Shown here in pieces: positions 6,710-28,701 of a stretch of 43,415 nt of DNA. The notes below the pieces were generated by a model. It was not told the DNA's origin. It was given only the letters and a program-made list of their open reading frames with translations, and ran no database searches. The position numbers and the translations under genes were made by a program. Within the stretch, counting starts at the first letter, position 1, and each line of letters opens with the position of its first letter. Source of the stretch: a virus; IMG/VR virus record IMGVR_UViG_3300034198_012655, positions 1-43,415 of that record. One strand, given 5' to 3'.

Positions 6710-9700
6710 ATGTCATCATCTAATATTGCCTACAAATCAGTGCCGGGCCAGTTCAATATTGACGCTGCTCAAGGTATTGTTGAATGTTTTGTAGCCGGAA
6801 TCGGCAACAAGGACTCAGTTGGCGACGTTCTCGTTACTGGTGCGTTTACAAAGAGCCTTACGCGCCGCAAGCCAAGAGTTGTTTGGGGCCATAATTGGAA
6901 TGACCCAATTGGTAAAGTCCTTGAAATCTACGAGGTTCCGCCAAGTGACTCACGTCTGCCAATGAAGATGAAGGTTGCTGGAATTGGTGGTCTTTACGCA
7001 CGAGTGCAGTTCAATCTCAACTCCGAAAAAGGAAAAGAAGCATTTGCCAATGTTGCCTTCTTCGGGCAAGAACAAGAATGGTCAATTGGGTACAAGACCC
7101 TTGATGCAATTTTTGACCCAAACCTTCAGGCTAATATTCTTAAAGAAGTGGAACTTTATGAAGTTTCTCCAGTTCTTCACGGTGCAAACCAGTTGACTGG
7201 AACAATTTCTGTAAAGTCGGATGACACTGCCGAAAAGTGCGGTCCTGGCGGGATGATGCCTCACCATATGAATATGGAGCAAGGTCCAAAGATTGTTGTT
7301 CTCAGAACAGAAGACGAAGAAGACGATAAGCCAATCTTCTCAGAAGGTCTTGCTCAGCCAATTGGTGGAAGCGAGAGAGAAAGACTCTCCCGAGAACTTC
7401 AGTCAAGAAGTGGCTCACCAATTCAATTGATTCAGGCTACGGAGAACACTGCAATCTTTAGAAGAAACACTTCTGACGGGCGCTCAACCATGTATCGCAT
7501 CGGATACCACACGCCAGACAATTATGTGACATTTATGTTTGGTAAGCCAGAACTTGCTGATGGCGGTTCAAGTGGCTCTCGCACTGTTGTTCCTTCTCAG
7601 ATGCCATCAATGCCCATGCAGGTAAAGCCTCAAGCAGCAATGCCAGAGCCACAAGGGGTAGTTAGTCCTTCTTACGTGATGCCAAAAAGTGACGGTTTTG
7701 AAAAGTCTGCTTTTGATGAAGAACTTGAAATGCTTGCAGACTTGCTTGACGAAACGTTTGACGCCAAAGTTGGTAGAACTTTAAGTTCAAGAAATATGTC
7801 AAAACTGAAGACAGTCCTTGAGACGCTTCAAGAGATTGTTGCTTCCGCTGATAAAGATATTGAAGTCAAGACAGACGAATACATTATTCCCGTTGCTCTT
7901 GAAGATGCATTCAGTACAAAGCAACTGCTTGACCCAATTTTTGACTATCACAGAGTTGAAAGCCATGTTTCCGAAGACGGAATAATTATTACATCGGGCG
8001 TTACCAAGGACTTCCTGGACGCAATGGAGACCGCACAGAAAGCACTCGGCGGCAGTATAGGCGGTGGCGGGGGAAAAGTGCGAGGGGTGGCACGATTCGC
8101 CACCGAAGCATTTGACCCAAACGCTGTTGACGGCGACAACGACGGGTTAGTCCAAGAGGGCTCCGCGTTTGAGCGACCTGCTACACCAAGTGTGAGCGGC
8201 CTTAGGTCTTTAGACGACAAGCAAATTTTTAACAAGCCTCGGTCAGAAAAAAACGACCAAGGAATAAACGTTTTTGACTCACATATTCTCGCTGACAGAA
8301 TGAAGGGCATGTCTCTTGAAGAAGCGGCAAAAAAACACGGAATCCCAGCAGAGAAAATTCGTCAACGCGAAGCCCGTGAAATGGCGAGACTTCGTAAAGA
8401 CGGAAGTACTAACGACATCATTGCCTACAGAATGATGGGCGTATCTCTGCAAGATGCTGGAAAGATGTTTGATAAGACGCCTCAGGAGATTCGTCAAATT
8501 GAGGCAAAAGAACTAGCAAAGTTTAGGGAAAATCCATCTGATGATGTAATTCTTGACTTCAGAGAGCGTGGTCTTAGTCTTGATGAAGTAGCAAAAATGA
8601 CAGGCTTAAAGAACACGGAAGTTCGCAAGCGTGAGCAGATTGCTCGTAGAGACAGGCCGGAGATTCCACCACCGGACAAAGAATTAACTGACGAACAACT
8701 CGCGCAGTGGGCAAAAGACAGAGAACAAGGCGGCCTTTCATCTCGTGGCGACGACTCTGAATATGCTCGTGAACTTGCAAAACAACGAGAAAAAGACAAA
8801 GCACGCGGAGCAAATGCTACTAATCCTATAGGTCCACAAAAACCTTCAGGTGAAAGTGGACTCCGTTCCAGCAATGCAGAGATTGTCTCAAAAGATGACC
8901 TACCAAAAGAACTAGTAAACGACGTATCAAATGCTGCAGTTCGCGCCGTTGGTTCCAATGGTGATGAGACGCGACTTATTGATGGGGCTAAAGAAGCATT
9001 AGCAAACCTTACTGACGAAAAACTCAAAGACAGTGTCGGAACGTCTGTATCTGATGCAAGAAAAAAATTAGCAGAAATGCTTTCTGATGAAAACATTATT
9101 GAACAATTTGAGTCAAGACAAGCAATTGAAGATTTTATGGACGAAGTAGGATATTCCGTTCAAAAAATGCTTGATTCACATGTTTCTTCTGTGAAAAAAA
9201 CAGGAACTTCTATTGAAAAAGAAGAAATTGAAGACATCGTAGATAATGCAAAATCTAAATTTGATGATGATTTTAATAAATTAATTAAAGCGTCTAAAGA
9301 ATTCTGGAGCAAGAGACGCAAACCAGGCAGGCTTGATAACACTCCAGAAGAAGCAAAAAAAACAGCAGCAGAAGATAGAAAGAACTTGATGGCATCCCTC
9401 AGGGCAGGTGGGGAGCCAGAAGACCTTGCAGCAACTCTTGGTTCCATTTCTAAACTGTTTGGGGATAGTTCTGAAGGAATAACCTCTGGAACAATTTCTC
9501 TTGAAGATTTAAACTATGAAATAGAAAAAGCAATTGACCAAATTGTTGAAAATGACCCATCAATTGATTCTGAAGAATTAGTAAATGAATTTGCTGATGC
9601 CCTCCGTGAAGGAGCATCTAAAGACGACGCAAACCCACTGATTGTTGCTTTGGCAAAAGAGTTTGGCGATGAAAAGATTACTGGTGGAGACTTAATTGAC

Positions 9701-12700
9701 TCCCTAAATGACACTCGTCAAAATTCTGTGTATAGGCCAGACAGGGGCAAGATTGAAAAAGAAAACATTCGTGGCCTTGCATCTCGCGATAGCAAGCCCG
9801 TGCTTGGTCGTGACATTTCGTACTTTGAACCACCTGATGATGCAAATGAACAAATCTGGCAAAATGCCGTAGAAGAGGCAAAAGATTTAACACGCAAAGA
9901 CTTTGACAGTGACTACAACGAACTTCTTGCAGACACTATTGATGATGAGGTAAGAATTGCTCTTCGTGGAAAAGGTTTCAAGGGCGAAGCACTTACTCCT
10001 GGACAAAAAGAACTTCAAGACGACCTTGTGAATAATCTTGGAAAAGTCATAGAGGACTCTATTGCCCTCAATGGCGATGACAAGTTCTACGACGAACTTA
10101 AAAAAATAGCGGCTCTCCCTAAAGAGGAAAGACTTGCTGCGCTTAAAAAGTTTACGGAAACAGACGGTCTTTCAAAGAAAGACAGACAGTCTCTTGATAA
10201 TTCAATCACACGTCTCGGAGCAGGTATCCAGGAAAATTATGTCTCTGGTGGAGACAATGCTTTTGATACCGAACTTGACGGGCTGATGAAGAACAATGCT
10301 GCTGAACAGTTATACGATAGTGCGATTAATTTCGACCCCAATGACGGTGAAAGCGGTCTTTCATCCCGCGGTTCAAGAGACCCCAAGAAAGTGCCTTATG
10401 GAAGTGGCTACAGCGCCAACCTGAGCGAAGACGAAATATCTCAACTCAAAGAAGACCTCAAAGACATCGATGGCGTGCAAGACATCGTAAAGCGCCTGAA
10501 CGAAGCAACCCCATCGCAGGCTATGGATTCACAGCGAATCCGCATGACTCCGCAAGAACTTGATAAGTGGCTTAAAGATATTGAAACTGCCCGTGAGGGA
10601 ATGTCAGGCATTGAAAGCAATGTCCTTGGTGATATTGAAGACATCCTTACCCGAGCAAAAAATGATGCTTATAACAACTTCACTTCTCCGTCTGTATCTA
10701 GACGCACACGCCCACTTCGTACTGAAAGTGGAACAATCAATGCTCATCCAAAACTTGACATTGAACTCTCGCAAGACGAAATTGGTCTCCTTCGTGAAGA
10801 GATTAAAGGTCTAATTAAAAACGCAAGTAAGCCTGAGGCGTTGACCGCTTTAGATGAAACTCTTTCAAAAGCAAGTAATGGAAAATTCTCTATTTCTGCA
10901 GAAGAATACAATTCGCTCATACCAAGCATTGAGGAATCTAAGAAAAAAGGTAACTTGGTAACGTCCGACTTGCTTGGACTTCTTGAAGACGTTGCTGATA
11001 GTAAAGATGGAAAGTATTCCAGTATTGAAATTGCAAAGACTGGTGCAGAAGGCGGAATTGGAAAGCCAAAGCGTCTTAATTCTGGCGCGCCGGCAGATAT
11101 AACTGTTGGAAGACAACGTGAACTCATTGATTGGGCTCGTCAACAGAAGGGTCTGAGAATTGCTCAGTCTCATGTTTCTGACTTTGACAAGAACAAGGGA
11201 CAACTGTCTCCAAGCCAGTGGCGTGCCCTTGAAACATTGCACACAAACTTGGGACCAGGTGGTGGAGGGCTTCGTTCATCCAATGAAGGAGATGCCCCAA
11301 CGCCTCGCTCTTCAAAACCTGGCGGCGGAGCAAGAGGAATTGGCGATGTAACCAGAGGAGAAACAAGCCGTGGACGTCAAATGGGCGGCGAGCAACTTGG
11401 TGAAAGAGATAAGGGCAAGGTTTTTGATGACCTAAAGCCAGACAACTGGGACGACCTTGACAATGAAGAAAAACTTGACTGGATGCTTTACGAAGGAAGC
11501 CCTGCCAAGTCAGGAATGAAGCCAATTGACCACGAACGAGTCCTTAAAGAACTGTTTGCTGAAGAAGAAAAAATCAATGCCCGCAAAGAACGTGACGCCC
11601 GTCGTGCTGCACGTCCTGCGGACTGGATTCCTCCAAAAATTGAATCTAAGCCTCTTGATGAAGCAAAGCCAGCAAAAAAACGACCTACAACAAAAGAAGC
11701 AGCCGCAAAACAGCGTGATAGCGAAATGACAAGCCTTGTAGATTTTGTTTCTTCATCTGCATCAAGAGTTGACTCAGCAAAACAGACTGACGACATTGAA
11801 GCAGCCCACGAAGACATTTGGACAGAACTTGATGACGTCCTTTCTGGAAGCGAAGATTTAACTCGTTCAAATATCAGCGCAATGATTGAGTCGTTAAACA
11901 CTTATATCGACGATTATTCCGGCAACACAAACAACTCAGAAGAAGGAAAGAATGTCACAAGGGCAAAGAAACTTCTTAAGACCCTTGAGGACCTTGATGT
12001 CTACTACGAAGATGACACGTTCATTTCTGACGGTGATGTTGTTTCGGGCGAAAGACCTTCATTTGGAACTGGCGGATTAGACAGCAGAAGCGGATTAAGC
12101 AGTTTCAGTATTAGACGCAATAAGCCCGAAGAGTCAAAAACCCCCAAAGTTGTTAAGCCGAAGAAAAAACTAGTAACTGATAACTGGAAGAAAGTTGGCG
12201 GCCAAGGCGGTTCTCAACCAGGCGGCAAATTCGCTGACGAGAATGGTAAAGAGTTCTACGTTAAAGAACCTAAAACTCTCCTTCATGCTGAAAATGAAAG
12301 TCTTGTATCAAAACTCTATGCAGCGCTTGGTGTAAAGGCAGCAGATGTTGAGGTTGGCGAACACAAGGGCAAGCCAAAAATTGTCTCTGAATGGGTTCCT
12401 GGAGCAAAAACAGGAATCATGGGTTCAAAGAGAAGCGACCCAGAATGGCGTAAGAAGGTTCAGTCTGGATTCGTTGCAGATGCATGGCTTGCCAACTGGG
12501 ACGCCCTAGGTAATGCTGACAATATCGCTATCGGCGGAGACGGAGAGGCGTACCGTGTAGATACCGGTGGCGGCATCTTGTTCCGTGCAAGAGGAGCAGA
12601 AAAAGGTTCCCAGTTCGGCAGCACCGTTGGGGAGATGGAATCGCTTAGAAACCCAAGTGTAAACAGCCTGGGAGCCTCGTACTACGGAGATATCACCCCA

Positions 12701-13501
12701 GAACAAATTGCCGCTCAGGTAAAAACCGTTGGTGCTCTTTCGGACACAGACATTAGAGACATGGTTTCTGCTTCAATCTCCGACCCTTCTCAAGCAAAAA
12801 AGATTTCAGACACTCTTATTGCCCGCCGTGACGACCTTGTAAAGAACTGGTCAACCGGAGTTAAGGGTGGACGCAGTGGAATGAGTTCACGTTCAGAAAA
12901 ACTTGACATTGACAAAACTATTGGCAAGTCTGGAATTACTCCTGCATCATTAAAAAAGCAAGCAGAACTTAAATCGACTATTGACGAATGGAAAAAAGCC
13001 AACGAAGCAAAGTATGGCAAGCCTGGAACTCTAGATAGAACTTCAGGTCTTCGTTCGTCATCAGCCAAGCCAGGAAGAACAATGATTACCGATGAAGCCA
13101 CTTACTTTGGTGAAGTTGAAAGTTCTCTTCCCAAGGAAATTGAAGCGGCTCGTAAAGCAAATGACAAAGCAACAGCAGAAGGTTTGCAAAAACTACTTGA
13201 CTTAATTAAGAAGCAAGAAGCATCAAAGACTGGCAGTAGAAGAACAAACGTTGGAAGCATTTATGCAACACGCGATGAAGTTGACCAAATACTTGACGCA
13301 ATGATGGTAGCCCTTGACAGACAAATGGAACGTGGCGAAGGTAAGGGCGAAAACAGAATAAAGATGTATTCAAAACTTATTGAGATGCTTGCTGCTGCGG
13401 GAATGTCAACATTTATTGACAGAGATACAGACGAGATTGGTTCTCGTACAACTAAACGAACAAATTCTCAAGGAAGAAATATAAGTATTCCGAATACGTA
13501 A
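6710..13501 (+). CDS. Giant prohead protease fusion / candidate polyprotein
   Basis: About 2263 aa. The first 175 residues are an HK97-type prohead serine protease: WGHNW carries the predicted catalytic His, EWSIGY the Ser, and VELYEVSPV follows. After a low-complexity linker come a DxDxDGxxxE loop (DGDNDGLVQEG, about residue 475), three HTH-like repeats of about 45 aa (about 525-650), long charged coiled-coil or scaffold-like regions, and near 1830-2050 a HipA-like kinase domain with a nucleotide-binding Lys (FYVKEP), a catalytic loop NWDALGNADNI and a VDTGGG metal motif. About ten SGL[SR]S[SR]-type peptides divide it. Start: ATG 6710 has GGAG four bases upstream; ATG 6689 would add seven residues but lacks a ribosome site. 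A protease of about 200 aa is usual, so the fusion is extreme. Ordinary capsid proteolysis is known for the family; self-processing of this chain is inference. Confidence 0.85.
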   Translation: MSSSNIAYKSVPGQFNIDAAQGIVECFVAGIGNKDSVGDVLVTGAFTKSLTRRKPRVVWGHNWNDPIGKVLEIYEVPPSDSRLPMKMKVAGIGGLYARVQFNLNSEKGKEAFANVAFFGQEQEWSIGYKTLDAIFDPNLQANILKEVELYEVSPVLHGANQLTGTISVKSDDTAEKCGPGGMMPHHMNMEQGPKIVVLRTEDEEDDKPIFSEGLAQPIGGSERERLSRELQSRSGSPIQLIQATENTAIFRRNTSDGRSTMYRIGYHTPDNYVTFMFGKPELADGGSSGSRTVVPSQMPSMPMQVKPQAAMPEPQGVVSPSYVMPKSDGFEKSAFDEELEMLADLLDETFDAKVGRTLSSRNMSKLKTVLETLQEIVASADKDIEVKTDEYIIPVALEDAFSTKQLLDPIFDYHRVESHVSEDGIIITSGVTKDFLDAMETAQKALGGSIGGGGGKVRGVARFATEAFDPNAVDGDNDGLVQEGSAFERPATPSVSGLRSLDDKQIFNKPRSEKNDQGINVFDSHILADRMKGMSLEEAAKKHGIPAEKIRQREAREMARLRKDGSTNDIIAYRMMGVSLQDAGKMFDKTPQEIRQIEAKELAKFRENPSDDVILDFRERGLSLDEVAKMTGLKNTEVRKREQIARRDRPEIPPPDKELTDEQLAQWAKDREQGGLSSRGDDSEYARELAKQREKDKARGANATNPIGPQKPSGESGLRSSNAEIVSKDDLPKELVNDVSNAAVRAVGSNGDETRLIDGAKEALANLTDEKLKDSVGTSVSDARKKLAEMLSDENIIEQFESRQAIEDFMDEVGYSVQKMLDSHVSSVKKTGTSIEKEEIEDIVDNAKSKFDDDFNKLIKASKEFWSKRRKPGRLDNTPEEAKKTAAEDRKNLMASLRAGGEPEDLAATLGSISKLFGDSSEGITSGTISLEDLNYEIEKAIDQIVENDPSIDSEELVNEFADALREGASKDDANPLIVALAKEFGDEKITGGDLIDSLNDTRQNSVYRPDRGKIEKENIRGLASRDSKPVLGRDISYFEPPDDANEQIWQNAVEEAKDLTRKDFDSDYNELLADTIDDEVRIALRGKGFKGEALTPGQKELQDDLVNNLGKVIEDSIALNGDDKFYDELKKIAALPKEERLAALKKFTETDGLSKKDRQSLDNSITRLGAGIQENYVSGGDNAFDTELDGLMKNNAAEQLYDSAINFDPNDGESGLSSRGSRDPKKVPYGSGYSANLSEDEISQLKEDLKDIDGVQDIVKRLNEATPSQAMDSQRIRMTPQELDKWLKDIETAREGMSGIESNVLGDIEDILTRAKNDAYNNFTSPSVSRRTRPLRTESGTINAHPKLDIELSQDEIGLLREEIKGLIKNASKPEALTALDETLSKASNGKFSISAEEYNSLIPSIEESKKKGNLVTSDLLGLLEDVADSKDGKYSSIEIAKTGAEGGIGKPKRLNSGAPADITVGRQRELIDWARQQKGLRIAQSHVSDFDKNKGQLSPSQWRALETLHTNLGPGGGGLRSSNEGDAPTPRSSKPGGGARGIGDVTRGETSRGRQMGGEQLGERDKGKVFDDLKPDNWDDLDNEEKLDWMLYEGSPAKSGMKPIDHERVLKELFAEEEKINARKERDARRAARPADWIPPKIESKPLDEAKPAKKRPTTKEAAAKQRDSEMTSLVDFVSSSASRVDSAKQTDDIEAAHEDIWTELDDVLSGSEDLTRSNISAMIESLNTYIDDYSGNTNNSEEGKNVTRAKKLLKTLEDLDVYYEDDTFISDGDVVSGERPSFGTGGLDSRSGLSSFSIRRNKPEESKTPKVVKPKKKLVTDNWKKVGGQGGSQPGGKFADENGKEFYVKEPKTLLHAENESLVSKLYAALGVKAADVEVGEHKGKPKIVSEWVPGAKTGIMGSKRSDPEWRKKVQSGFVADAWLANWDALGNADNIAIGGDGEAYRVDTGGGILFRARGAEKGSQFGSTVGEMESLRNPSVNSLGASYYGDITPEQIAAQVKTVGALSDTDIRDMVSASISDPSQAKKISDTLIARRDDLVKNWSTGVKGGRSGMSSRSEKLDIDKTIGKSGITPASLKKQAELKSTIDEWKKANEAKYGKPGTLDRTSGLRSSSAKPGRTMITDEATYFGEVESSLPKEIEAARKANDKATAEGLQKLLDLIKKQEASKTGSRRTNVGSIYATRDEVDQILDAMMVALDRQMERGEGKGENRIKMYSKLIEMLAAAGMSTFIDRDTDEIGSRTTKRTNSQGRNISIPNT

Positions 13502-15015: not shown

Positions 15016-18000
15016 ATGACGGGGGTGAACTATAACAAAAGTCGCCATTACGCGCCTGGGTTCAACAAAAGGACTACTCGTCTTGATGTAAATTCTCGCG
15101 CAATAGTCTTCAAGGCTGGAACTTCAGTTATATCAAGTACTGAACGCTTAATCGCAGACGTATCAATCAAGGCTGCAATGCCTGGAGATACTGATGGTAA
15201 AAAGCGAGGGCTTGAAGGAAAACGCTCAAAATTTGTAAACCATTACGGAATGGTTTTTGACCCTACTGCAACAAAGAAGCCAGGACAATACTTTAAGCAT
15301 TATGTAACTGAAACAGAACGTATTCAGGCAATGATGGTTGATGAACCGTATCCAAACTTTGGATGGGTTGATGTTGGTTATGAACGAAATGGAATAAAGC
15401 CAAACCCTAAAGCCAAGGTCAGAAGAAAAAGATACAAAATTGACCCACGTACTGGCCAGCCGTTAAAAAGCACCGGGATAGAAATAAAAAATCTTGGTCC
15501 CAAAATAGGCGAGACAACTGGTGGAAATATTGGTTCCAGAGCAGCACGGTCTGCAGGACTAATTGTTGATGCTCTCGGTAAGTTTAGATGCCCTCCAGGA
15601 ACTCCTGCAGCAAACAGATTTACAAACGCAAGAGGAGAGGGCTGTGCTGCGTTGAGCGTAAGCGGTCTTCGTTCAGCAAGCGAAAGAATAACAGAAGCAC
15701 TTGGAAGAATTCACCCTAAATTACCGGCGATGGTTGGAAGAGCAAACCCACGCACAGGAGCATCGGCCGCCCAGTTTATAGCGCAACACAACAGAGAAAT
15801 TGCGGCAGCAGGAAGAATTGGAATAATTGCCGGAACAACTGCAATTGGCGCAGGGCTCGCTGCTAGAGACTACGTTCAAGAGGTAATCGGCGGCGACCTT
15901 ACAGACGAATTTACAGACGCTATAATTACCGTTCTTCAAGACCCAACACATTTATCAATTGTTCAGGCTCTTATTGCTGCAGGTGCATCTGCTTTCATGA
16001 TTAGAAAAAGAATGGAAGAAGACGAAGACGGTCCTGCAAGTGGTCTTAGAAGTCTTGCGTCAAGCATGCTTATAGATATTGACGACATGCTTGTTGGAGA
16101 CAAGGGTCTTGATGGAACATACATGGGTTCTGCGATGACAAGACTGCGCGAGCGCTCTATGGACATTCAGCATTCAGTCGCCGGCATCGCAAGAAGGACT
16201 CAAGACAGAGAAAGAATGATTAAAGACCTTCTTGCTCGTCACGGAATAGCAGAAACTGGCGATGGAACAGACATTGCTGAACTGATGGTAAAACTTGCCG
16301 AAGAAGGAATACTTCATCCAGATACAGAATTTGGCGATTTCTTTGTGGGTGGAACTCTTGAGTCTCATCAAGACTGGGCTGCACAAAGAGTTATTTCTGG
16401 TCTTGACATTCTTGCTGACGGGATGAATGATGTAGAAACATTCCAAGAATATAAGCGATTAAAACTTGCTAATGAAGTAACGCCATTGACTGAACTTGTA
16501 GACATGGCTTTAACCAGAGAGCGCACATACGTAAACGGTGCGCTTGCTGGAATTATTGAGCAAGCACAAAAACATCCAGATATTGCATCAAAGACAAGAA
16601 TTAAAGTTGGGTCTTACTTTGTGGAATCCCCTAGTGGAATGAAACTTGGAGTAGATAGAGGAAGAGACGTTTTTGACCCTACATGGCATGGTGAATCAGG
16701 ACCAAATATGATTTTGATTAGGTCCGATACGGCGTTTAAAGGTCTGCCATCACTCCCAGGGCCAGGAGAAGTTGACCTTGTTGATGCAGTTGGCGGAAAC
16801 TATGAAGACCAACTTGCGTCAATTTCTGCCGCACTTTCATCTGACGAAAGAATGCGCACATGGACTTTTACGCACATGACGGACCTTGCTGCTGCGCAAG
16901 GTAATGGATGGGCTGACATGGGTTCAGAGGTAGGAATCCATGAGTTCTCTCACTTAATCCAGTTTGACAGAATTCTCACTTGGGCTGAAGCAAACGGTCA
17001 AGACATAGACGGTATGAGCAATGTTCAATTAATGGGCGTTGTCAACGGATTTTTAGCAGCGTCAAATCCTGAAGACATGAGATATGTTTTTGGCAACGAC
17101 ATTGAAGATATTATTGAAAAACGTCTTGACGCTCTGGCTGGAGTTTATTCATACACCGAGCAACAAAAAGCATTGGAATTGCTAAATGCTAGTGACGTAG
17201 ATGGTTTTAATAAAGCAAAATCTGTTGCCATGCTTGAAACACTCGCTGAACTTTACTCAGCACGAGAAATGGGCCTTATGGATGGGCCAGATATTGATGA
17301 CGCCCTAGGGTGGGCCAGACCTCATTCTGGTCCTGTTTCTAGTGGTCTTCCATCTGCAGCACCTAGGCCAATAATTCCAATGAGCACGCCGGTACCACCT
17401 GCCCCAAGACCTCTTATACCTATAGATTCTCCACGCCCGATTATCCCAATGCGCCCAGACCCTATTGATGGTTCTGGAAGTGGAATGTTTGGTCCAAAGT
17501 ATGTTGACCCAGACATTCAGGCATTTATTGATTCTGTTAAAGATATGGAATTTCCAAGCACCGAGGCACTTGATAACCTCGTAAAAGAACACAGCAAGAA
17601 ACTTTCAAAAGAAGAATTTGAAGCATTAATAAATTCTCAAAAAATTCGCGGTGGCTCATCTGACGGGTTTGGATTCTCAAGCCTGACTAACACTTCGGAC
17701 AATCTTGATTCAATTGCCGAAATAACTGGGGCATTTGAAAGAAACGGTCTTGAAGCACCTAAAAATATTGGCGAAGACATGATTCAACAGGAATCATTGG
17801 TTCTTGAAGCGCTTGATAAAACACAATTACCTATGGACATGGTCGCTGAAATCCAAATTGAAATTTCAGAAGACGTATCAATTGGCGATTCAATTGACAT
17901 AAATGAACCTATAACTGGAAATATCATTACAAACGAACCAACCAGCGGTCTTTCTTCAAAACTAGGAATAGCATCTAAATTGTTAGGTTCAAAACGGGGT

Positions 18001-20604
18001 CGTAAGATTCTTGAAAAAATTGGCGTCGGAGAAGAAAGACAAGAATCTCTTGAATTTGTAGCAGAAATGGCTGAAGCGTTTACTGCTTTTGGACCTCCAG
18101 GAGTTGCTGCCGTTCTTGCTAGACGAGGCGGAAGAGATGCCGCAGATAAATTCCTTACTGTTGCTGTTGAGCGCGGATGGATTGACCCGTCTACAGCAGA
18201 AAAAGCAAAGCCCTTTATTGAAAAAATTGCACCGGAAGGTCTTCCTGACGACGTAATGAAAGGTCTTGAAAAATCAGCAGACGTTCTTGCTAGTGAAGGA
18301 ACAAGAGAAAAAGCAAGAGAAATTGCCAGTGCTGCCAGAGAAAGAATTTCCGAACTTGATGTATCTGGAGCAAAAGACAAAGCAAAAGAAATTGCCGAAG
18401 GCGCTAAAGACAGGGTTGTTGATGCAACAGAGTCCTTGAGAGACAGAGTCCGCCGTAGAGGGGATAAAACTCCAGAATTAGGTTCATCAATTCCTGAACC
18501 ATCATGGTTTCCAGACCCGGTTGACTCAACCAGAAAAAGATGGTGGGACGGCGAGCGATATACGGAACATATTGTAGGTAGTGATGGAATTCAGGGAATT
18601 GACGCTGACCCTCGCCTTCATAAACCAAAAGATGTTGACCCTTTTTCTGATGCTTCAACAGAAATGCCAACATGGGAAAGTGACACTTTTGTAACTGACC
18701 CAATTTCTATTGACCCATTTTCTTCAACTGACGCATTTGGCGATACAACTAGTGGCATGTCGTCTCGTTCTGTTAAGCCAAAAACAACTGCTGACCTAAT
18801 TGATGCAATTCGAACAAGCAACATGTCAACAGAGGAACTACTTGAAGCAGGATTTTCTCAATCGCAAATTGATTCCGTACGTAAAAGACTGAACGAAAAA
18901 TCAATACTTACCGATTTGGTTACGTTTAAAATACCAGCAAATATTAACTTCAAAATTCTGCCACCCACTCCAGATTTAAAGAAAAAGAAAAATTCAGTAA
19001 GACTCGTTTTGCCTAATGGCTCAAACGCGGCGGTAACAAATATGAATGGAAATACGAACGGAATTACTATTCCTCCTGGGAAGATGAAAATTACAGGTCG
19101 TGGTGAAGATGGTGTTCTTGAAGCAGAAATATCTCATCAGGTAACATCAGATGAATATTTGAAAGAAACACAAAATAATTTGTCTTTAATATCGTCTTCC
19201 CCAATTAGCGAAAACAGAAAATACGCAGATAGTCTTCTTGGTTTTGTCAAGGAAAAACGCAAAAATAAAACTATTTCTGGTGCTAGGTCAATGTCTACCG
19301 CGTCAAAAAATACACTTGCGCGTTCAAACGAAATAATTTCTGATTTAGTTAAAATTAACAATAAGCCGTTTGGTCAAAATGAAGTAACAAAAGGCGAACA
19401 AACGATGCCTTACGATAAGTATGCGGAAAGATATTCAATTGCTATCTATGCTCTACTAAGAGAAGCAAGAAATAAATCTGGCGCTTCCTTGTTTGGAGAA
19501 GAAGTTCCAGAAGAAGTGTCTAAGATTCTTGAAAAGTATTTAGACAAGCAGATTAAAGAACTAATTACAAAACTGGCAGTTGATGTCCATAATGAATTTG
19601 ATAGAAGAGCCAGGTTCTCTATTGACAATGAATTGCTACAAAAGTTTGTAAGCGCAAAGAAAATAAGCGGAGAAAGTTCAAAATCAAAATCTATTTCAAG
19701 ACTGCGTCAATCTCGCAATAATGCTATTGGCATAAGAGACTTAAGTACAAAAATAACAAATGTTTCGCTAATTAACGGTTCTTATATTCAAAAAATCGAA
19801 GAGGGTTTAAGAGAAAAAGGAACACTTGTTGGTTCTGAAGAATTTATGGATTACGACCGTGGAATGGAACTTGTTCTTCGCGGCGAAAATGCACCGAGAA
19901 TTTTTTACGGAAGAAAAAATGCTTACAACTCCGGCGGGTCCTATGTCCTGCTTAACGAAAATGACGAAACAGCAATTGAGTTAGCAATTTTTGGAATGAT
20001 TGGAGCAAGCGGTAGAGACTCGGTGTCCGAACTATTTGACATACTTTTGACTCTTTCCGACGGAAATCACGACAGAATATTGAACAATAACGGTACTTCA
20101 GAATTTGAAGCATTTATAATTGACGAAATAAGAATAGAAGATGTTGAGCACGTAAAAATTCCGACTTCTATTTTTAATTCACAAATGAGCAAAATCCCAG
20201 AAAATGACATGATTGCTGGAAGAATATTTATTTCTGAAATGCTTAAATCTCGTGGCGCTACGGATGAAGAACTAAAAGCATTTTTTGAAAAAGGTGGACA
20301 GGTAGGCGGAGGGTTTACTCCAAAGTTCTACAACATTCTTTCCGACATAGGCAAGGCAGAAAAATTAAAGAAAAAACTTATTGACTTAGGGATTGAAGAA
20401 GTTATTTTCACAAACAAAGATGGAGTTGATATTCTTGCTGAAGACACGTGGGTGAGCCCTAGTCCGAATAGGGAAAACGGAAGAATCGGCCTCTACGGAA
20501 TGGCGATGCAAGAAATGGTTAGATTTATTGACAAAATCAAACCTCCTGATAAAGAAAAGCCAAAGCCAAAGCAAAAACCAAAGCCTAAGGAAAAAGCCAA
20601 ATGA
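15016..20604 (+). CDS. Giant virion protein with HEFSH metallopeptidase domain
   Basis: 1862 aa, candidate polyprotein. The N-terminal 170 residues are basic. A Cys-pair peptide (RCPPGTPAANRFTNARGEGC) lies near 192. Two hydrophobic glycine-rich helices (about 268-290 and 313-332) could insert in a membrane. A metallopeptidase-like domain has HEFSH at about 642-646 and a downstream ETLAEL near 745 that could supply the third zinc ligand. A Pro-rich stretch lies near 775-815. A W..DP...RWWDG..YTEH segment at about 1158-1180 matches the DUF2510 motif of actinobacterial proteins. The C-terminus is a mixed alpha/beta region ending in a Lys/Pro tail. SGL-type peptides occur near 215, 341, 776, 977 and 1246. 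Its stop overlaps the next ATG by four bases. The zincin call is fair; the substrate is unknown. Confidence 0.8.
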   Translation: MTGVNYNKSRHYAPGFNKRTTRLDVNSRAIVFKAGTSVISSTERLIADVSIKAAMPGDTDGKKRGLEGKRSKFVNHYGMVFDPTATKKPGQYFKHYVTETERIQAMMVDEPYPNFGWVDVGYERNGIKPNPKAKVRRKRYKIDPRTGQPLKSTGIEIKNLGPKIGETTGGNIGSRAARSAGLIVDALGKFRCPPGTPAANRFTNARGEGCAALSVSGLRSASERITEALGRIHPKLPAMVGRANPRTGASAAQFIAQHNREIAAAGRIGIIAGTTAIGAGLAARDYVQEVIGGDLTDEFTDAIITVLQDPTHLSIVQALIAAGASAFMIRKRMEEDEDGPASGLRSLASSMLIDIDDMLVGDKGLDGTYMGSAMTRLRERSMDIQHSVAGIARRTQDRERMIKDLLARHGIAETGDGTDIAELMVKLAEEGILHPDTEFGDFFVGGTLESHQDWAAQRVISGLDILADGMNDVETFQEYKRLKLANEVTPLTELVDMALTRERTYVNGALAGIIEQAQKHPDIASKTRIKVGSYFVESPSGMKLGVDRGRDVFDPTWHGESGPNMILIRSDTAFKGLPSLPGPGEVDLVDAVGGNYEDQLASISAALSSDERMRTWTFTHMTDLAAAQGNGWADMGSEVGIHEFSHLIQFDRILTWAEANGQDIDGMSNVQLMGVVNGFLAASNPEDMRYVFGNDIEDIIEKRLDALAGVYSYTEQQKALELLNASDVDGFNKAKSVAMLETLAELYSAREMGLMDGPDIDDALGWARPHSGPVSSGLPSAAPRPIIPMSTPVPPAPRPLIPIDSPRPIIPMRPDPIDGSGSGMFGPKYVDPDIQAFIDSVKDMEFPSTEALDNLVKEHSKKLSKEEFEALINSQKIRGGSSDGFGFSSLTNTSDNLDSIAEITGAFERNGLEAPKNIGEDMIQQESLVLEALDKTQLPMDMVAEIQIEISEDVSIGDSIDINEPITGNIITNEPTSGLSSKLGIASKLLGSKRGRKILEKIGVGEERQESLEFVAEMAEAFTAFGPPGVAAVLARRGGRDAADKFLTVAVERGWIDPSTAEKAKPFIEKIAPEGLPDDVMKGLEKSADVLASEGTREKAREIASAARERISELDVSGAKDKAKEIAEGAKDRVVDATESLRDRVRRRGDKTPELGSSIPEPSWFPDPVDSTRKRWWDGERYTEHIVGSDGIQGIDADPRLHKPKDVDPFSDASTEMPTWESDTFVTDPISIDPFSSTDAFGDTTSGMSSRSVKPKTTADLIDAIRTSNMSTEELLEAGFSQSQIDSVRKRLNEKSILTDLVTFKIPANINFKILPPTPDLKKKKNSVRLVLPNGSNAAVTNMNGNTNGITIPPGKMKITGRGEDGVLEAEISHQVTSDEYLKETQNNLSLISSSPISENRKYADSLLGFVKEKRKNKTISGARSMSTASKNTLARSNEIISDLVKINNKPFGQNEVTKGEQTMPYDKYAERYSIAIYALLREARNKSGASLFGEEVPEEVSKILEKYLDKQIKELITKLAVDVHNEFDRRARFSIDNELLQKFVSAKKISGESSKSKSISRLRQSRNNAIGIRDLSTKITNVSLINGSYIQKIEEGLREKGTLVGSEEFMDYDRGMELVLRGENAPRIFYGRKNAYNSGGSYVLLNENDETAIELAIFGMIGASGRDSVSELFDILLTLSDGNHDRILNNNGTSEFEAFIIDEIRIEDVEHVKIPTSIFNSQMSKIPENDMIAGRIFISEMLKSRGATDEELKAFFEKGGQVGGGFTPKFYNILSDIGKAEKLKKKLIDLGIEEVIFTNKDGVDILAEDTWVSPSPNRENGRIGLYGMAMQEMVRFIDKIKPPDKEKPKPKQKPKPKEKAK

Positions 20605-21610: not shown

Positions 21611-21611
21611 C

Positions 21612-23618: not shown

Positions 23619-26470
23619 AACAAGTAGCGGTACTATTTGACGCACTACGTAACGAGCAATTTGCCGTTGCAGTTCGTGACAATTCTGGAACTATTTATTA
23701 CGGAGCAGAAGGACAGGGTCGCGAGTGGGCACAATGGGTTAACTCAAATAACACCAAGAGCCTTAATACATCTGAACTTCCATCAGGAATTGTTCTTGGA
23801 ACATATAAGCCTCTCAATGATGTAGCAATTAAATCATTGATTAACGAACTTGGATACAACGAAAATCCAATTAGTAACGCTTTCACCAATTCACAAGCGT
23901 ATATTTCATGCAAATCTGTCAAGATGGCAAATACTTCTATTGTTCCAGCAGTAATGGACACACCTATTAGTCATTTTACAAAAGAACAATACTTGTCGGT
24001 TATCGGCTACAAAGGTCTTACTTTCAGAACTCAAGTCAAAGAAGGAAGTTTTCTTTTTGAAGCAAGAGTAAATCAATACTCATACGACTTTGAACGTGAA
24101 ATGTTTAATGCATTGCCGTCAAAAGCAAACATTAAGTCACTGCGTCAACGCCTTGATTCAAACTTAAGCAGAAGCACAGAAAGAAGAATTGGCGCAAAAA
24201 TGAAGAGCGCAATTCTTGACGAGGGTGGACGTACCCATGTTGGTGCATCTTTTAGTCTTGAAACAAAGAGCCTTGATTTTGAAACAAAAGGCATTGGCGA
24301 AAGAATCGGCGGAAGTGCCGGAAGCGGAAGTCGTGGAGCAAGAAGAATTGCAAGAATGGCTTCTGAGCCATTTGACCCAAAGGCTGTCGACGGAGACAAC
24401 GATGGCTTAGTACAGGAAGGCTCAGCATTTGAGCGTCCTGCAACACCAAAAGTTCCTGGTGCAATTACACGCATGGGTGCATCTGTTGGTGACGGATTTG
24501 ACCCTAAGTCATCACGTAATGGAACTGGTACAAGAAAAGCCAAGCCAGGTGAAAGAATTAAACTTAAGCCGGCTTCTGCTCTTGGGGCAGAATTTGACCC
24601 AGAAAAAGCAAGCAGGCTTGAGGGAAGAAGAACAGCAAAGCCAGCGGGAAGACTAAGCAACACCGGTCAGAGAAGCAGAGTTAGCACTGCGCGTACAGAT
24701 ATCACTACTTCTGGTCTTTCTTCTCGTTCAGAAAGAGCAAAGAAGAAAGCACTCAAGAAGGCAATTCCCGGAATTAACAAAGTTGACGACAACGACGGCT
24801 CAACTTGGGATTCTCTTACTTCTGACCAGAAAATACAGGTTGCCGAGAACCTTCGCCAACGCAGAAAAGATGTTGAATCAAGAATTAAAAAGACTTTCCC
24901 TGGATGGTTTGAAGGATTTACTGAAGCCAATAAAGACAAGAAAGACCCGGATGGCGTTAATTGGAATAAAGATTCACGCATAGTGGGCGCTGTTCTTGCT
25001 GACCTTGACGTGGAGGTTGCGGACGCTATTGAAGCAATTGATGCCGACACGGAGATGGACGACGCAACAAAAGCAAAAAAGAAAAATGATATTCAAAAGA
25101 TGCTTGACGACCTCAAGACACTTACGAATATGGAAGAAAGAGACGACTACTCTCTTCTTGAGCACCTACACCCTGCTTCTCGTAAGGCTGCAGCAGGAAA
25201 AGTAAGAGCAGCAGGAAAGAAAGATTCTTACAAAGACGTTTTCTCTGGTGGAAAAACTCCTTCATTATTTACCTCAACAGTGAAGTCTTCAATCTTTGGA
25301 GAACCAGGTGGAGTAACAAACGAAAAACCACTTGTTGGAAAGAAGGGTGACGCAAAACTTAAAAACCTTGTTCGCCGTCTTGCTGAACCAAACCCTGAAA
25401 GAGTTCGTCGTAGAGAACTTAGAAAACTCAAAAAGAAGAAGGGTAACGTCGGAGCCTTTGAGGTTGGTGAAGACGCAGGTAGAGACCCAATCGGTGATAC
25501 CAAGAGAAGAATCCGTAAAGCAAAGCGTGCTCTTGCAGCAAAACTTCGCGGAACTCGCAGCGATACCTCAATTGAAAAGGCCATCAAGAAGGGTCAAATA
25601 GGAACGATGCTTAAAAACGATGAAGGAAAGATTACTCTTACTCCGGAATCTATTAAAGCAATGGGCGACATTCTTGGCGGAGTTAGAAAAGCGTCCAAGG
25701 GAGACCGTGCTGACACGCTTCTTGGTGGACTATGGGACGCCAATAACTTCAACGGTCTCGCTACCCCTGTTACTGAAGAAGAAGCACACATGCTTATTGA
25801 AGCAGGATGGATGCCAATTCAGCGTGGACACAAGGTAGAGAAGTATGCCGACGACTACATCAGCGACCCGGTTAGATTTATTACTGGAGAAGGCGGAGAA
25901 GCGGTTGGTCCTGGAGAGTATTGGGCACACCCAGAAAGTAGCGGTTGGGATAGTTGGATTAAGGGTCAAAGCGGAACGATTGCTTTCTTGCCTCCAGCAT
26001 CAAAAATTACTACTCGTGAAGAAATGGCCAAACATGCTTCCGATAACCGCAAGATTACAGAAGCGGTTGACGCTTTTGTTTCGGGTTTCCCTAAGGGCGA
26101 AGCAGAAAAAATGGAGCCAGCAGACTTTATCCGTGAACTAAAATCATATCTAGCGAAAGGTGCTATATCTGACAGTGACTCCGTATGGGGACGAGAGATG
26201 GGTCAAATGTGGAGCCAAATCTATAGTCTGTACGGAAGCGCCGAAGGTGGAGAAAAAGCACAACTGTGGACTGCAATTAAGTTCATGCGTGACATGGCTA
26301 GAGCAGATAAAAACCAGTACGCAACACTTCTTGGATATGACGCAATCAACCTTGGAAAGGGAGATGGTAGAGTCCTTTTAATGAACAGACCAGGTATAGC
26401 AATTCTAGACCGGACGCTTACTCTTCCTGAGATTAAACAAGTTGCCAAAAAGATTACCCTCGGAGCATAA
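23615..26470 (+). CDS. Virion protein with calcium-loop motif and ADP-ribosyltransferase-like C-terminus
   Basis: 951 aa. The N-terminal 230 residues form an unrecognised alpha/beta domain. Near 252 comes the DGDNDGLVQEG calcium-loop peptide shared with two other proteins here, then a basic low-complexity stretch and an SGL peptide (TTSGLSSRSE) near 366. A long charged helical region follows to about 700. The last 220 residues look like an ADP-ribosyltransferase fold: WMPIQRG (candidate NAD-binding Arg) near 731, GPGEYWA, a central beta region with TIAFLPPASKIT, and GYDAINLGKGDGRVLLMNRPG near the end, which is typical of phage ART-like domains. A clear catalytic ExE is not obvious, so activity is uncertain. 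The start overlaps the previous gene by four bases. Confidence 0.78.
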   Translation: MKQVAVLFDALRNEQFAVAVRDNSGTIYYGAEGQGREWAQWVNSNNTKSLNTSELPSGIVLGTYKPLNDVAIKSLINELGYNENPISNAFTNSQAYISCKSVKMANTSIVPAVMDTPISHFTKEQYLSVIGYKGLTFRTQVKEGSFLFEARVNQYSYDFEREMFNALPSKANIKSLRQRLDSNLSRSTERRIGAKMKSAILDEGGRTHVGASFSLETKSLDFETKGIGERIGGSAGSGSRGARRIARMASEPFDPKAVDGDNDGLVQEGSAFERPATPKVPGAITRMGASVGDGFDPKSSRNGTGTRKAKPGERIKLKPASALGAEFDPEKASRLEGRRTAKPAGRLSNTGQRSRVSTARTDITTSGLSSRSERAKKKALKKAIPGINKVDDNDGSTWDSLTSDQKIQVAENLRQRRKDVESRIKKTFPGWFEGFTEANKDKKDPDGVNWNKDSRIVGAVLADLDVEVADAIEAIDADTEMDDATKAKKKNDIQKMLDDLKTLTNMEERDDYSLLEHLHPASRKAAAGKVRAAGKKDSYKDVFSGGKTPSLFTSTVKSSIFGEPGGVTNEKPLVGKKGDAKLKNLVRRLAEPNPERVRRRELRKLKKKKGNVGAFEVGEDAGRDPIGDTKRRIRKAKRALAAKLRGTRSDTSIEKAIKKGQIGTMLKNDEGKITLTPESIKAMGDILGGVRKASKGDRADTLLGGLWDANNFNGLATPVTEEEAHMLIEAGWMPIQRGHKVEKYADDYISDPVRFITGEGGEAVGPGEYWAHPESSGWDSWIKGQSGTIAFLPPASKITTREEMAKHASDNRKITEAVDAFVSGFPKGEAEKMEPADFIRELKSYLAKGAISDSDSVWGREMGQMWSQIYSLYGSAEGGEKAQLWTAIKFMRDMARADKNQYATLLGYDAINLGKGDGRVLLMNRPGIAILDRTLTLPEIKQVAKKITLGA

Positions 26471-26472
26471 AA

Positions 26473-26811: not shown

Positions 26812-26817
26812 TAGGCA

Positions 26818-28701
26818 ATGTTTTCCGAACTATCACAGAAGGTACTTGCAATACGCAATGCCACATCTATTGGCTGCACTGGTGCTCATCGTGCCCCTAG
26901 TGGCGATTGGATGCCATGTTCATCAACCAACGAATTGATGCATACTGTTTTTGGTGAAGAAGTAAAGTCTCGTCTTTCGTTTGAAGAACTTAGTTCATGG
27001 TCAGAAAGACGTTCCGCCAAAGGTAAAAGACGTAAAAGAAAACTTGGCAAAGGTTGGGAAAAACTTCGCGAACGTGGAGTTATGGGTTTTGAAAATATTG
27101 AGGGTGGAGGAATAGTCTCTCAGACCAGTCCTTCGTCTTCTCCACAAAAAAACCCTTCATCATGGATTACTGGCGGAACAATCGCTCCAATGATAAATGG
27201 AAACCCGAACCCGCCGAACATGCCTAGTGGCATTCCTGTTCCTGGTGGACGTTCTGGCTCAAACGGAATGTCTGTAAAAAGCATTGAGCAAGCATCTTCA
27301 CCTAGAGACAACGACGTAGACGTATTTACTGACATTGAGTCTGCTCGTGCTCGTTCAAGACAGATGGGATGCATCGGCGTAAGCAGAAGAATCTCAAAGA
27401 CAGGCAAAATTGTGTGGATGCCATGTACCAACATGAGCGACTATGCAAGAGTCTCTGGAAGCACTGCTCTCGGAAGAAGACATCAAACTGAAGAGATTAG
27501 AAAAGTAGTAAGAACGGTTCTAAAAGACACTCTTAAGGTTCGCAAAAAATCAATCAACGAAGAAATTCTTGGTAAATCACTAGGAAGAACTCTTCGCGGA
27601 GCAACTAGTAGATTGACCGAGCCATTTGACCCTAAAGCGATTGATGGAGATAACGATGGATTGATTCAAGAGGGTTCATCATTTGAGCGTCCGGGATTGC
27701 CTAGTGTTCCTAAGGTTCCAGAAGTACTAAAAACTCCTAAAACCGAAAAACTTAAAGACCCAGTTCTTTCGGATATTGAAGTGAGAGCAGCAAGCGATTG
27801 GCTCGGAAAATTGACTCCAACAAAAAGAGAGCAATTGTTTTTCCCTCCAATTGATGCAGTTGAAAACGGAGCGACAAGCGGTCTTTCTTCTTTTGCAATA
27901 AGCCGTGATAGAAACCCACAAAAAGCAGGAAAACTTCCTCGCTTATCATTGCCGAGTAACCCAGATGCAACAGATACAAATCCGTTTGTAAATCTCGGCG
28001 GAAAAGCAATGGGAAAAATTATTCGTAAAAGAGTTAAGCCGGAACATAAAGGTAAAAAAGATAGAAGAGCCTTTATTGTTGGAGGAACAACCGGAGCCGG
28101 TAAAGGCGTAGTTACCGAATGGCTGCAGGAACGTGGTCTTCTCCCTAAGGATGACGAGGCTGCGCATATTGACCCTGACTTCATCAAACTTGGACTCAGG
28201 GGGTACGACGACGGAAGAGGTGCTGAACGAGTTCATCAAGAATCACGCCGTTCTACTGACCTCACCATCCGTGACGCAGCGAGTGATGGTATGGATTTAG
28301 TAATTCAAGGTGTCGGGAAAAGAATTGAACACTTTGAGGATGCTAAAAAACGTGGGGAAAAAGTTACTGCTCACTATGTTTACGCCCCATCGGACATTGC
28401 AAAACAAAGAATGATTACAAGAACACAGCAGACAGGAAGAGGTCTCAGTCCTCACCATGCTTCTTCTATCGCAAGACAAATACCTCCTGCAATATCGCAA
28501 TTGTTTGACAAAAACTTAATTGACGAGTTCTATCTTTGGGATAATTCCATTGATGGAGGGGTGCCGAAACTCATTGCATCAAAGGTTCCAGGCAAAAAAA
28601 TGGAGATTTTTGACAACGATAAGTTTGTTGATTTTGCCGGTGGACAAAGCGTTGTTGACTCATGGATTCGCAAGACGACACGAGGCGACAAAACAATCTA
28701 A
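26818..28701 (+). CDS. Virion protein with zeta-toxin-like kinase domain
   Basis: 627 aa. Two related Cys peptides occur: IGCTGAHRAPSGDWMPC near residue 18 and MGCIGVSRRISKTGKIVWMPC near 181. A DGDNDGLIQEG calcium-loop peptide lies near 275, and the SGL peptide ATSGLSSFAI near 353. The C-terminal 220 residues are a zeta-toxin-like P-loop domain: Walker A GGTTGAGKG near 421, HIDPDFIK near 449, a following DLTIRDAASDGMDLVIQG helix/strand pair and TRTQQTGRGLS further on. Zeta toxins phosphorylate UDP-N-acetylglucosamine and poison cell-wall synthesis; related kinases have other substrates. Its presence in a head operon just before the major capsid gene suggests packaging in the virion, which is inference. 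The kinase fold is well supported; the substrate is not. Confidence 0.83.
   Translation: MFSELSQKVLAIRNATSIGCTGAHRAPSGDWMPCSSTNELMHTVFGEEVKSRLSFEELSSWSERRSAKGKRRKRKLGKGWEKLRERGVMGFENIEGGGIVSQTSPSSSPQKNPSSWITGGTIAPMINGNPNPPNMPSGIPVPGGRSGSNGMSVKSIEQASSPRDNDVDVFTDIESARARSRQMGCIGVSRRISKTGKIVWMPCTNMSDYARVSGSTALGRRHQTEEIRKVVRTVLKDTLKVRKKSINEEILGKSLGRTLRGATSRLTEPFDPKAIDGDNDGLIQEGSSFERPGLPSVPKVPEVLKTPKTEKLKDPVLSDIEVRAASDWLGKLTPTKREQLFFPPIDAVENGATSGLSSFAISRDRNPQKAGKLPRLSLPSNPDATDTNPFVNLGGKAMGKIIRKRVKPEHKGKKDRRAFIVGGTTGAGKGVVTEWLQERGLLPKDDEAAHIDPDFIKLGLRGYDDGRGAERVHQESRRSTDLTIRDAASDGMDLVIQGVGKRIEHFEDAKKRGEKVTAHYVYAPSDIAKQRMITRTQQTGRGLSPHHASSIARQIPPAISQLFDKNLIDEFYLWDNSIDGGVPKLIASKVPGKKMEIFDNDKFVDFAGGQSVVDSWIRKTTRGDKTI

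What the first reader, a model, noticed from the sequence alone, without database searches (positions are those of the whole stretch)
6710..28701. Recurrent SGL[SR]S[SR] peptide punctuates five giant head-operon proteins: candidate prohead-protease cleavage sites in polyproteins
Seen: about ten copies in the 2263-aa protease fusion (for example GGLSSRG, ESGLRSSN, RGLASRDS, ESGLSSRG, GGGLRSSN, SGMSSRSE, SGLRSSSA), at least five in the 1862-aa protein (VSGLRSAS, ASGLRSLA, TSGLSSKL, TSGMSSRS, SSGLPSAA), and one each in the 668-, 951- and 627-aa proteins (TSGLAAL, TSGLSSRS, TSGLSSFA). The codons differ between copies, so selection is on the peptide, not on a DNA repeat. They fall in low-complexity linkers between domain-like blocks. 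Known: HK97-type prohead proteases cut capsid-assembly proteins at defined sites. Inference: the protease at the N-terminus of the largest chain matures the set into separate virion proteins at these sites. Alternatives are a docking peptide for the capsid or scaffold, or a flexible linker.
Basis: partly seen in the sequence, partly recalled or inferred. Interest (0 to 1): 0.88.

Follow-up and report, generated by a model that had tools for sequence, protein, structure and literature searches.

The report
Phage polyproteins with genome-specific cut marks
A group of uncultured aquatic phages makes giant multi-domain proteins whose domains are separated by a short peptide 'spelled' differently in each phage lineage but alike throughout one genome, which is best explained as a processing site for one phage protease that cuts the giants into the proteins a virion delivers into its host.

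Summary
The motif is real in four of the five proteins (SG[LM].S: 13 copies, about 0.3 expected). The 668-aa copy (TSGLAAL) is not one: it is conserved in relatives whatever their motif.

In 27 related head operons most genomes have their own over-represented motif of the same shape: SGL[RS]S, GFAS, RGLRSST, GMRSR, RLSSG, SISGRM, STRS. Evidence that one trans-acting factor reads all copies in a genome:
- At aligned positions, 44% of sites carry the other genome's own spelling (control 2.7%).
- 1 of 139 sites lies inside a known domain (20.8 expected); sites sit just before ArdC cassettes and flank helicases.
- Tested linkers are low-confidence in AlphaFold2.
- Models trained on head-operon giants find 39 hits (foreign models 2.1) in unlinked proteins: other giants and, unexpectedly, tape measure proteins, at a homologous N-terminal position.

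Best explanation: processing sites for a phage protease, most likely the conserved S78 prohead protease, releasing polyvalent cargo (ArdC, helicase, zeta kinase, CtkA-like kinase, DnaJ, NUDIX). Cleavage itself is not shown. The major capsid protein does not generally carry the genome's motif, and covariation does not single out the protease. A tail protein carrying the motif argues against pure capsid docking.

The parts
6689..7231 (+). Prohead protease domain (Peptidase_S78) at the N-terminus of giant 1 (P0001, 6689-13501, 2270 aa)
   Evidence: Pfam PF04586 E=1.5e-10; PHROG head maturation protease E=4.8e-27; WSIGY and ELYEVSPVLHGAN in 28 of 28 relatives, VVWGH in 27
8111..8179 (+). DGDNDG acidic-loop module (FDPNAVDGDNDGLVQEGSAFERP) of giant 1, just before the first motif
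   Evidence: part of an 81-base stretch 85% identical to 24369-24449
8195..8215 (+). Motif SGLRSLD (P0001 aa 503)
8303..8398 (+). Sigma70 region 4-like helix-turn-helix (P0001 aa 539-570), a cargo unit
   Evidence: Pfam PF04545 E=1.2e-9
8729..8749 (+). Motif variant GGLSSRG (aa 681)
   Evidence: below the motif-model threshold
8855..8875 (+). Motif SGLRSSN (aa 723)
9770..9790 (+). Motif variant RGLASRD (aa 1028)
   Evidence: below the motif-model threshold
10352..10372 (+). Motif SGLSSRG (aa 1222)
11264..11284 (+). Motif variant GGLRSSN (aa 1526)
   Evidence: below the motif-model threshold
12071..12109 (+). Double motif GGLDSRSGLSSFS (aa 1795 and 1801)
   Evidence: pLDDT below 50
12179..12850 (+). 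CtkA-like kinase-fold cargo domain (aa 1831-2054), with motifs 28 aa before and 11 aa after
   Evidence: tblastn to phage proteins; Foldseek CtkA 3akl E=8.6e-6
12875..12895 (+). Motif SGMSSRS (aa 2063)
   Evidence: pLDDT below 50
13043..13063 (+). Motif SGLRSSS (aa 2119); aligned with GFSSST, GLASTS and GMRSER in relatives
15661..15681 (+). Motif SGLRSAS in giant 2 (P0002 aa 216)
16039..16059 (+). Motif SGLRSLA (P0002 aa 342)
17341..17361 (+). Motif variant SGLPSAA (P0002 aa 776)
   Evidence: below the motif-model threshold
17944..17964 (+). Motif SGLSSKL (P0002 aa 977)
18751..18771 (+). Motif SGMSSRS (P0002 aa 1246)
24371..24439 (+). Second copy of the DGDNDG module, in giant 3 (P0004)
24710..24730 (+). 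Motif SGLSSRS in giant 3 (P0004 aa 366)
27625..27693 (+). Third copy of the DGDxDG module, in giant 4 (P0005)
27877..27897 (+). Motif SGLSSFA in giant 4 (P0005 aa 354), in the linker before the zeta-kinase domain
   Evidence: pLDDT 26-32
28054..28503 (+). Zeta-toxin-family kinase domain (P0005 aa 413-562), a cargo unit
   Evidence: Pfam PF06414 E=1.5e-13; Foldseek zeta 1gvn, PezT 2p5t
28860..30209 (+). Major capsid protein; KGLGSSAS at aa 90-97 resembles the motif but is not conserved as such

Best explanation
The peptide is a proteolytic processing site read by one phage-encoded protease, most likely the S78 prohead protease that heads giant 1. The phage encodes its virion-delivered proteins (kinases, ArdC antirestriction, helicase, nuclease, zeta kinase, HTH, NUDIX and J-domain units) as a few giant polyproteins. 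Each starts with a conserved part; in many giants this is followed by a DGDxDG module, then motif-separated cargo. The protease cuts in the disordered linkers and releases domain-sized cargo. Because it is one enzyme, all sites in a genome share its current specificity and drift together, giving the dialects (SGL[RS]S, GFAS, GMRSR, RLSSG, SISGRM, STRS and others). The tape measure protein appears to be processed at its N-terminus by the same specificity. Shown by computation: dialects, positional homology, domain-boundary placement, occurrence outside the operon. Inferred: cleavage itself, the identity of the protease, the scissile bond (perhaps hydrophobic-x-Ser/Gly| at P3-P1), packaging and ejection of the cargo.
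For: De novo motif per genome with one common shape in most of 27 related operons, far above shuffles in the clearest cases, and in about 28 of 32 further protease loci, with new spellings PLGSR, RGMASR and RSLRSSG. Sites are confined to giants: 2.39 per 1000 aa against 0-0.25 in portal, 459-aa, 668-aa and small ORFs. Orthologous positions: 44% of 710 site-alignments carry the other genome's own spelling, control 2.7%. Leave-one-out: 69% of 420 sites assigned to the right genome (chance 4%), 91% to the right clade (17%). 1 of 139 sites inside known domains, 20.8 expected, P=0.0002. ArdC cassettes are preceded within 6-19 aa by the local spelling. 0 of 97 sites before the DGDxDG module although 24% of the residues lie there. 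Linkers are low-pLDDT. Out of sample: 39 own versus 2.1 foreign hits in unlinked giants and tape measure proteins; homologous tape-measure site, Fisher 0.0013 on clade medians. Protease conserved in all 28. Precedent: SPN3US gp245 cuts after A-x-E (P3-P2-P1) with Ser favoured at P1' (PMC10052503).
Against: No cleavage data. The major capsid protein does not carry its genome's motif in general; only the GMRS clade scores significantly. Partial Mantel tests support protease and capsid distance equally, and portal and 668-aa distances better. Three genomes with the protease (G009, G030, G031) show no motif, although G031 has a 3497-aa protein. Cultured relatives have the protease but no motif. 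No depletion of motif-like sequence in other head proteins. Enrichment at positions equivalent to protein termini is weak: 11 of 52 versus 6.0 expected for C-termini, none for N-termini.
Confidence: 0.6

Rival explanations
1. Docking (cargo-loading) peptide: the motif binds the inside of the procapsid or its scaffold and is not cut; many copies keep the giants inside the head.
For: Would also give genome-wide concerted spelling and linker placement. [quoted passage not shown]
Against: Local-dialect sites also occur in tape measure proteins, which are tail proteins. Sites are numerous, about one per domain-sized unit, and avoid domain interiors. The conserved N-terminal parts before the DGDxDG module hold no site (0 of 97). 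Cargo encoded as separate genes in cultured relatives lacks any such motif.
Confidence: 0.15
2. Processing sites cut by another protease: the HExxH zincin-like domain of giant 2 or a host protease, rather than the S78 prohead protease.
For: HExxH domains are present in nearly all motif-bearing genomes, including G032, and Iyer et al. proposed that zincin-like metallopeptidases process polyvalent proteins (PMC5512222). The capsid protein lacks the motif.
Against: The HExxH domain is poorly conserved (24-36% identity even among close relatives of the window) and also present in the motif-less genomes G030 and G031. The ArdC-type MPTase-PolyVal was found only in a subset of the genomes scanned. 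Spelling that drifts between related phages argues against a host protease (inference).
Confidence: 0.13
3. Ejection or translocation tag: the motif is recognised during delivery of proteins through the tail, so that head cargo and tape measure protein share it.
For: The shared feature of motif-bearing proteins could be that all enter the host; tape measure proteins carry it.
Against: No known precedent (own knowledge). It would not need repeated copies at successive unit boundaries of one chain.
Confidence: 0.06
4. No specific function: composition-driven linker sequence that diverges with the lineage.
For: The motif is rich in G, S and R, as linkers are; dialects partly follow phylogeny.
Against: Scoring was against local composition with shuffled controls; positions are conserved while spelling changes; spelling agrees between unlinked proteins of one genome.
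Confidence: 0.04

Closest known systems
Polyvalent proteins of phages and conjugative elements (Iyer et al. 2017, PMC5512222)
   Same: Multi-domain proteins combining ArdcN, MPTase-PolyVal, helicase, zeta kinase and other domains, encoded near head genes and predicted to be delivered with DNA.
   Different: There the assemblin-like peptidase is described as always C-terminal and processing is attributed to zincins; here the S78 protease is N-terminal. The passages read describe no repeated genome-specific inter-domain motif.
Prohead-protease maturation of ejected head proteins in SPN3US (gp245, A-x-E|) and T4 (gp21)
   Same: A phage protease related to herpesvirus assemblin cuts several head proteins at a short P3-P1 motif; some propeptides hold several motif copies (PMC10052503).
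   Different: There most cuts remove N-terminal propeptides of separate proteins, the motif ends in Glu, and the capsid protein is a substrate. Here sites separate domains inside giants, end in Ser or Gly if read the same way, and the capsid protein does not match.
P1 Dar proteins (DarA, DarB)
   Same: Capsid-packaged antirestriction proteins, DarB about 250 kDa with a capsid localization signal; DarA trimmed by the protease Pro.
   Different: In the passages read no inter-domain repeated motif is described, and the only processing described is trimming of the DarA N-terminus.
Bendigovirus and Cantarevirus myophages of Gordonia and Brevibacterium
   Same: Nearest cultured relatives by capsid protein (47-53% identity) and S78 protease, with many ORFs between portal and capsid genes.
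   Different: Those ORFs are mostly separate genes; no such motif was found.

Membership tests
HK97-type prohead protease (Peptidase_S78) | S78 profile match with conserved sequence blocks | tested here: met
   PF04586 E=1.5e-10, PHROG_80 E=4.8e-27; WSIGY and ELYEVSPVLHGAN in 28 of 28 relatives, VVWGH in 27
HK97-type prohead protease (Peptidase_S78) | Encoded between portal and capsid genes | tested here: met
   Portal 4564-6600, protease 6689, capsid protein 28860
HK97-type prohead protease (Peptidase_S78) | Proteolytic activity on the capsid protein | not testable with these tools
   Needs expression or virion proteomics
Prohead-protease substrate carrying a shared cleavage motif | Same motif in several virion proteins of one genome | tested here: met
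   Giants 1-4 here; giants, unlinked giants and tape measure proteins in relatives
Prohead-protease substrate carrying a shared cleavage motif | Motif also at the maturation site of the major capsid protein | tested here: not met
   Own-dialect score no better than foreign or shuffled in most genomes; only the GMRS clade matches. The true capsid cleavage site is unknown.
Prohead-protease substrate carrying a shared cleavage motif | Cleavage at the motif | not testable with these tools
   No proteomics available
Prohead-protease substrate carrying a shared cleavage motif | Motif spelling co-varies with the protease rather than with other genes | tested here: inconclusive
   Partial Mantel: protease given capsid 0.37, capsid given protease 0.36
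Polyvalent proteins | Several unrelated effector domains in one chain near head genes | tested here: met
   S78, HTH, kinase fold and zeta kinase in the window; ArdcN, MPTase-PolyVal, UvrD, RNase_T, NUDIX, DnaJ, pentapeptide repeats in relatives
Polyvalent proteins | Delivered with DNA on infection | not testable with these tools
   Inference only
Capsid-targeting or cargo-loading peptide | Restricted to capsid-internal proteins | tested here: not met
   Own-dialect sites in tape measure proteins at a homologous position
Capsid-targeting or cargo-loading peptide | Binding to shell or core | not testable with these tools
   No binding assay or complex prediction available

The most novel reading that the evidence does not exclude
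A DNA phage lineage uses RNA-virus-like polyprotein logic with a genome-wide, drifting cleavage code: one protease matures several giant cargo polyproteins (up to about 4.7 thousand residues) and the tail tape measure protein, and its specificity has diverged into many dialects that all sites in a genome follow in concert.
Probability: 0.5. Interest if true: 0.9.

Novelty: new variant of a known kind. Interest (0 to 1): 0.82.

Why it matters
Polyvalent phage proteins are known, but how chains of 2000-4700 residues would be packed and passed through a tail is unexplained. A readable processing code would give the boundaries of each delivered effector directly from sequence, in phages known mostly from metagenomes. 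The drifting dialects are a natural experiment on protease-substrate co-evolution, with hundreds of sites and many specificities on a protease that stays 72-90% identical to the window's. Local-dialect sites in the tape measure protein suggest that head and tail maturation share one enzyme, for which I found no precedent.

Tried and rejected
(1) Global-background motif discovery was captured by low-complexity composition and was replaced by local-background scoring. (2) The capsid-protein match looked convincing by eye (KGLGSSAS, QLSSRE, GLREAR) but failed the own-versus-foreign test. (3) Partial Mantel tests to name the partner were inconclusive. (4) Avoidance of the motif in other head proteins: no signal. 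(5) Protein-terminus equivalence: weak for C-termini (11 versus 6.0), none for N-termini. (6) The Gordonia phage Gray repeat RLTDARTP is confined to one minor tail protein and unrelated. (7) The HExxH domain could not be excluded as the protease: it is present also in G032. (8) DNA-repeat origin rejected (codons differ). (9) The 668-aa copy rejected. (10) Literature searches found no prior description of such a motif; the library lacks most subscription papers.
Full report
WHAT IS THERE. The window is a 43.4-kb virus record of IMG/VR type. Its head operon runs portal (4564-6600), giant 1 = S78 prohead protease fusion (6689-13501, 2270 aa), 459-aa protein, giant 2 (15016-20604, 1862 aa), two small ORFs, 668-aa protein, giant 3 (23615-26470, 951 aa), small ORF, giant 4 (26818-28701, 627 aa), major capsid protein (28860-30209). 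SG[LM].S occurs 13 times in giants 1-4 against about 0.3 expected from composition. Synonymous codons differ freely, including Ser AGY versus TCN. The 668-aa copy (TSGLAAL) is not a member: TSGL[ATIV].L stands at that place in relatives of quite different motif.

RELATIVES AND DIALECTS. 396 capsid-protein and more than 580 protease relatives were found among IMG/VR contigs. I assembled 27 portal-to-capsid operons; gene order is broadly the same, but the giants range from about 500 to 4736 aa. An unbiased count of gapped 4-residue words per genome gave, in most genomes, a top word of one shape but different spelling. De novo motif models scored against local composition agree: RGFAS, SGLAST, SGFSST, RGLRSST, GLRS, SGL[RS]S, GMRSR, RGFSSRR, DGFASRG, GLSSGR, R[LF]SSG, KLSSG, SISGRM, TITGxM, STRS. 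Log-likelihood gains in the clearest genomes are several times those of shuffled controls (up to 244 versus 27); weaker cases (G014, G025, G027) rest on the spelling they share with their clade. In G022 the algorithm picked another word although LSSG occurs 8 times. G009, G030 and G031 gave no motif. A second set of 32 protease loci gave the same family in about 28, with further spellings PLGSR, RGMASR and RSLRSSG; some of these loci belong to genomes of the first set.

ONE READER PER GENOME. Leave-one-out assignment puts 69% of 420 sites in the right genome (chance 4%) and 91% in the right clade (chance 17%). Caveat: sites were chosen with the same models, so this number is optimistic. Independently, when a site lies in a region alignable to a genome of different spelling, 44% of 710 cases have that genome's own motif within 12 residues of the aligned position, against 2.7% for control positions. 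For example TSGLRSSS at window aa 2119 aligns with RMGFSSST, RVGLASTS and GGMRSER. Position is conserved while spelling changes in concert; this is what recognition by a single trans factor predicts.

WHERE THE SITES LIE. They are essentially confined to giants (2.39 per 1000 aa; 0-0.25 in portal, 459-aa, 668-aa and small proteins), with a median spacing of 176 aa. They avoid blocks conserved between genomes (0.57 covered versus 0.69 in circular shifts, lowest of 500 shifts 0.64). In 14 giants with Pfam or equivalent domains, 1 of 139 sites is inside a domain against 20.8 expected (P=0.0002). ArdC cassettes (ArdcN + MPTase-PolyVal) are preceded by a local-spelling site 6-19 residues upstream and are not split; UvrD helicases have sites about 20-30 residues from their ends in most cases; J-domains have one 12-13 residues upstream. 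New loci repeat this, including ALGSR in a PLGSR genome. In giants with the full FDPxAxDGDxDGxxQEG module no site precedes it (0 of 97, although 24% of residues lie there), and in 19 of 21 cases the next site follows within 31-119 residues. In AlphaFold2 models the sites at aa 354 of giant 4 and at aa 1795/1801, 2063 and 2119 of giant 1 lie in linkers of pLDDT below 50 between ordered blocks; the blocks resemble zeta/PezT and the kinase CtkA.

OUTSIDE THE OPERON. Motif models trained only on portal-to-capsid ORFs were applied to other proteins of the same genomes. They found 39 hits against 2.1 for models from other clades. Most are in unlinked giants (3112 aa in G003, 10 hits; 3222 aa in G005, 8; 2948 aa in G014, 7). 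The rest include tape measure proteins: GLASST, GMRSST and [RK]LSSG near residue 40-75 and, in some, again near 560-720. At the N-terminal tape-measure position several genomes without a full hit carry look-alikes of their own spelling (LAGRMG, LTGAM, ALASKG, STRS); clade-level Fisher P = 0.0013. Some genomes (G008, G016, G018) do not. In the parts of G024 and G032 read outside the operon there were no hits.

INTERPRETATION. The pattern fits processing sites of one protease: many sites per chain, at unit boundaries, in flexible linkers, absent from the conserved part where the module marks it, drifting in concert, and shared with a tail protein. A capsid-docking peptide explains the first features less well and the tape measure hardly at all. 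The register hydrophobic-x-[S/G] resembles the P3-P1 logic of SPN3US gp245 (A-x-E with Ser favoured at P1'; PMC10052503); this is an analogy. The S78 domain is the best candidate: phage-encoded, present in all 28 genomes with its conserved blocks, and fused to a major substrate, while G032 shows that it need not be fused to the motif-bearing chain. But the capsid protein does not carry the genome's motif in general, distance correlations do not separate protease from capsid, no avoidance in other head proteins was seen, and an HExxH domain is nearly always present as an alternative. The identity of the enzyme and cleavage itself remain inferred.

KNOWN VERSUS NEW. The cargo fits the polyvalent proteins of Iyer et al. 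2017 (PMC5512222), which compares them with viral polyproteins but credits zincins for processing and reports assemblin-like peptidases only at C-termini. Prohead proteases cutting internal head proteins are known in SPN3US, T4 and P1. I found no description of a lineage-specific inter-domain code, of an N-terminal prohead protease on kilo-residue cargo chains, or of such a code in a tape measure protein; the paper library is partial.

Noticed in passing
8111-8179, 24371-24439, 27625-27693: Acidic loop module FDPxAxDGDxDGx[VI]QEGSxFERP (like an EF-hand or dockerin Ca loop, by eye) in three of the four giants and in many relatives, marking the end of the conserved N-terminal part; may anchor giants in the procapsid.
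   Followed up: partly
L287-L299, L304, L237, L236 (tape measure proteins of relatives): Tape measure proteins of several relatives carry a local-dialect site near residue 40-75 and, in some genomes, another near 560-720.
   Followed up: yes
L300:356-9691 (-), L301:9561-19226 (+), L302:5738-14581 (+), L227:1954-5601 (-): Further giant polyvalent proteins outside the head operon in relatives, with the same DGDxDG module (in three of the four) and dialect motif.
   Followed up: partly
26818-27500, 15590-15660, 21960-22030: Small Cys-containing modules in N-terminal parts: DUF3721-like CxGxH...WMPC (two in giant 4) and CPPG/CPEG...FT...C in giant 2 and the 668-aa protein (by eye).
   Followed up: no
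32146-33312: The free-standing 388-aa protein has segments that resemble stretches inside the protease fusion proteins of the motif-less relatives G009 and G030: the same module free in one genome and fused in another (by eye).
   Followed up: no
G009, G030, G031 (L213, L226, L192, L193, L194, L195, L225): Relatives with the same protease (72-75% identity) but no detectable motif; G031 has a 3497-aa protein with no Pfam match. Possibly a state without this processing.
   Followed up: partly
30282-30821 and 33853-35898 (-): Dps/ferritin-like protein just downstream of the capsid gene and a ribonucleotide-reductase-like gene on the other strand (by eye, not searched).
   Followed up: no
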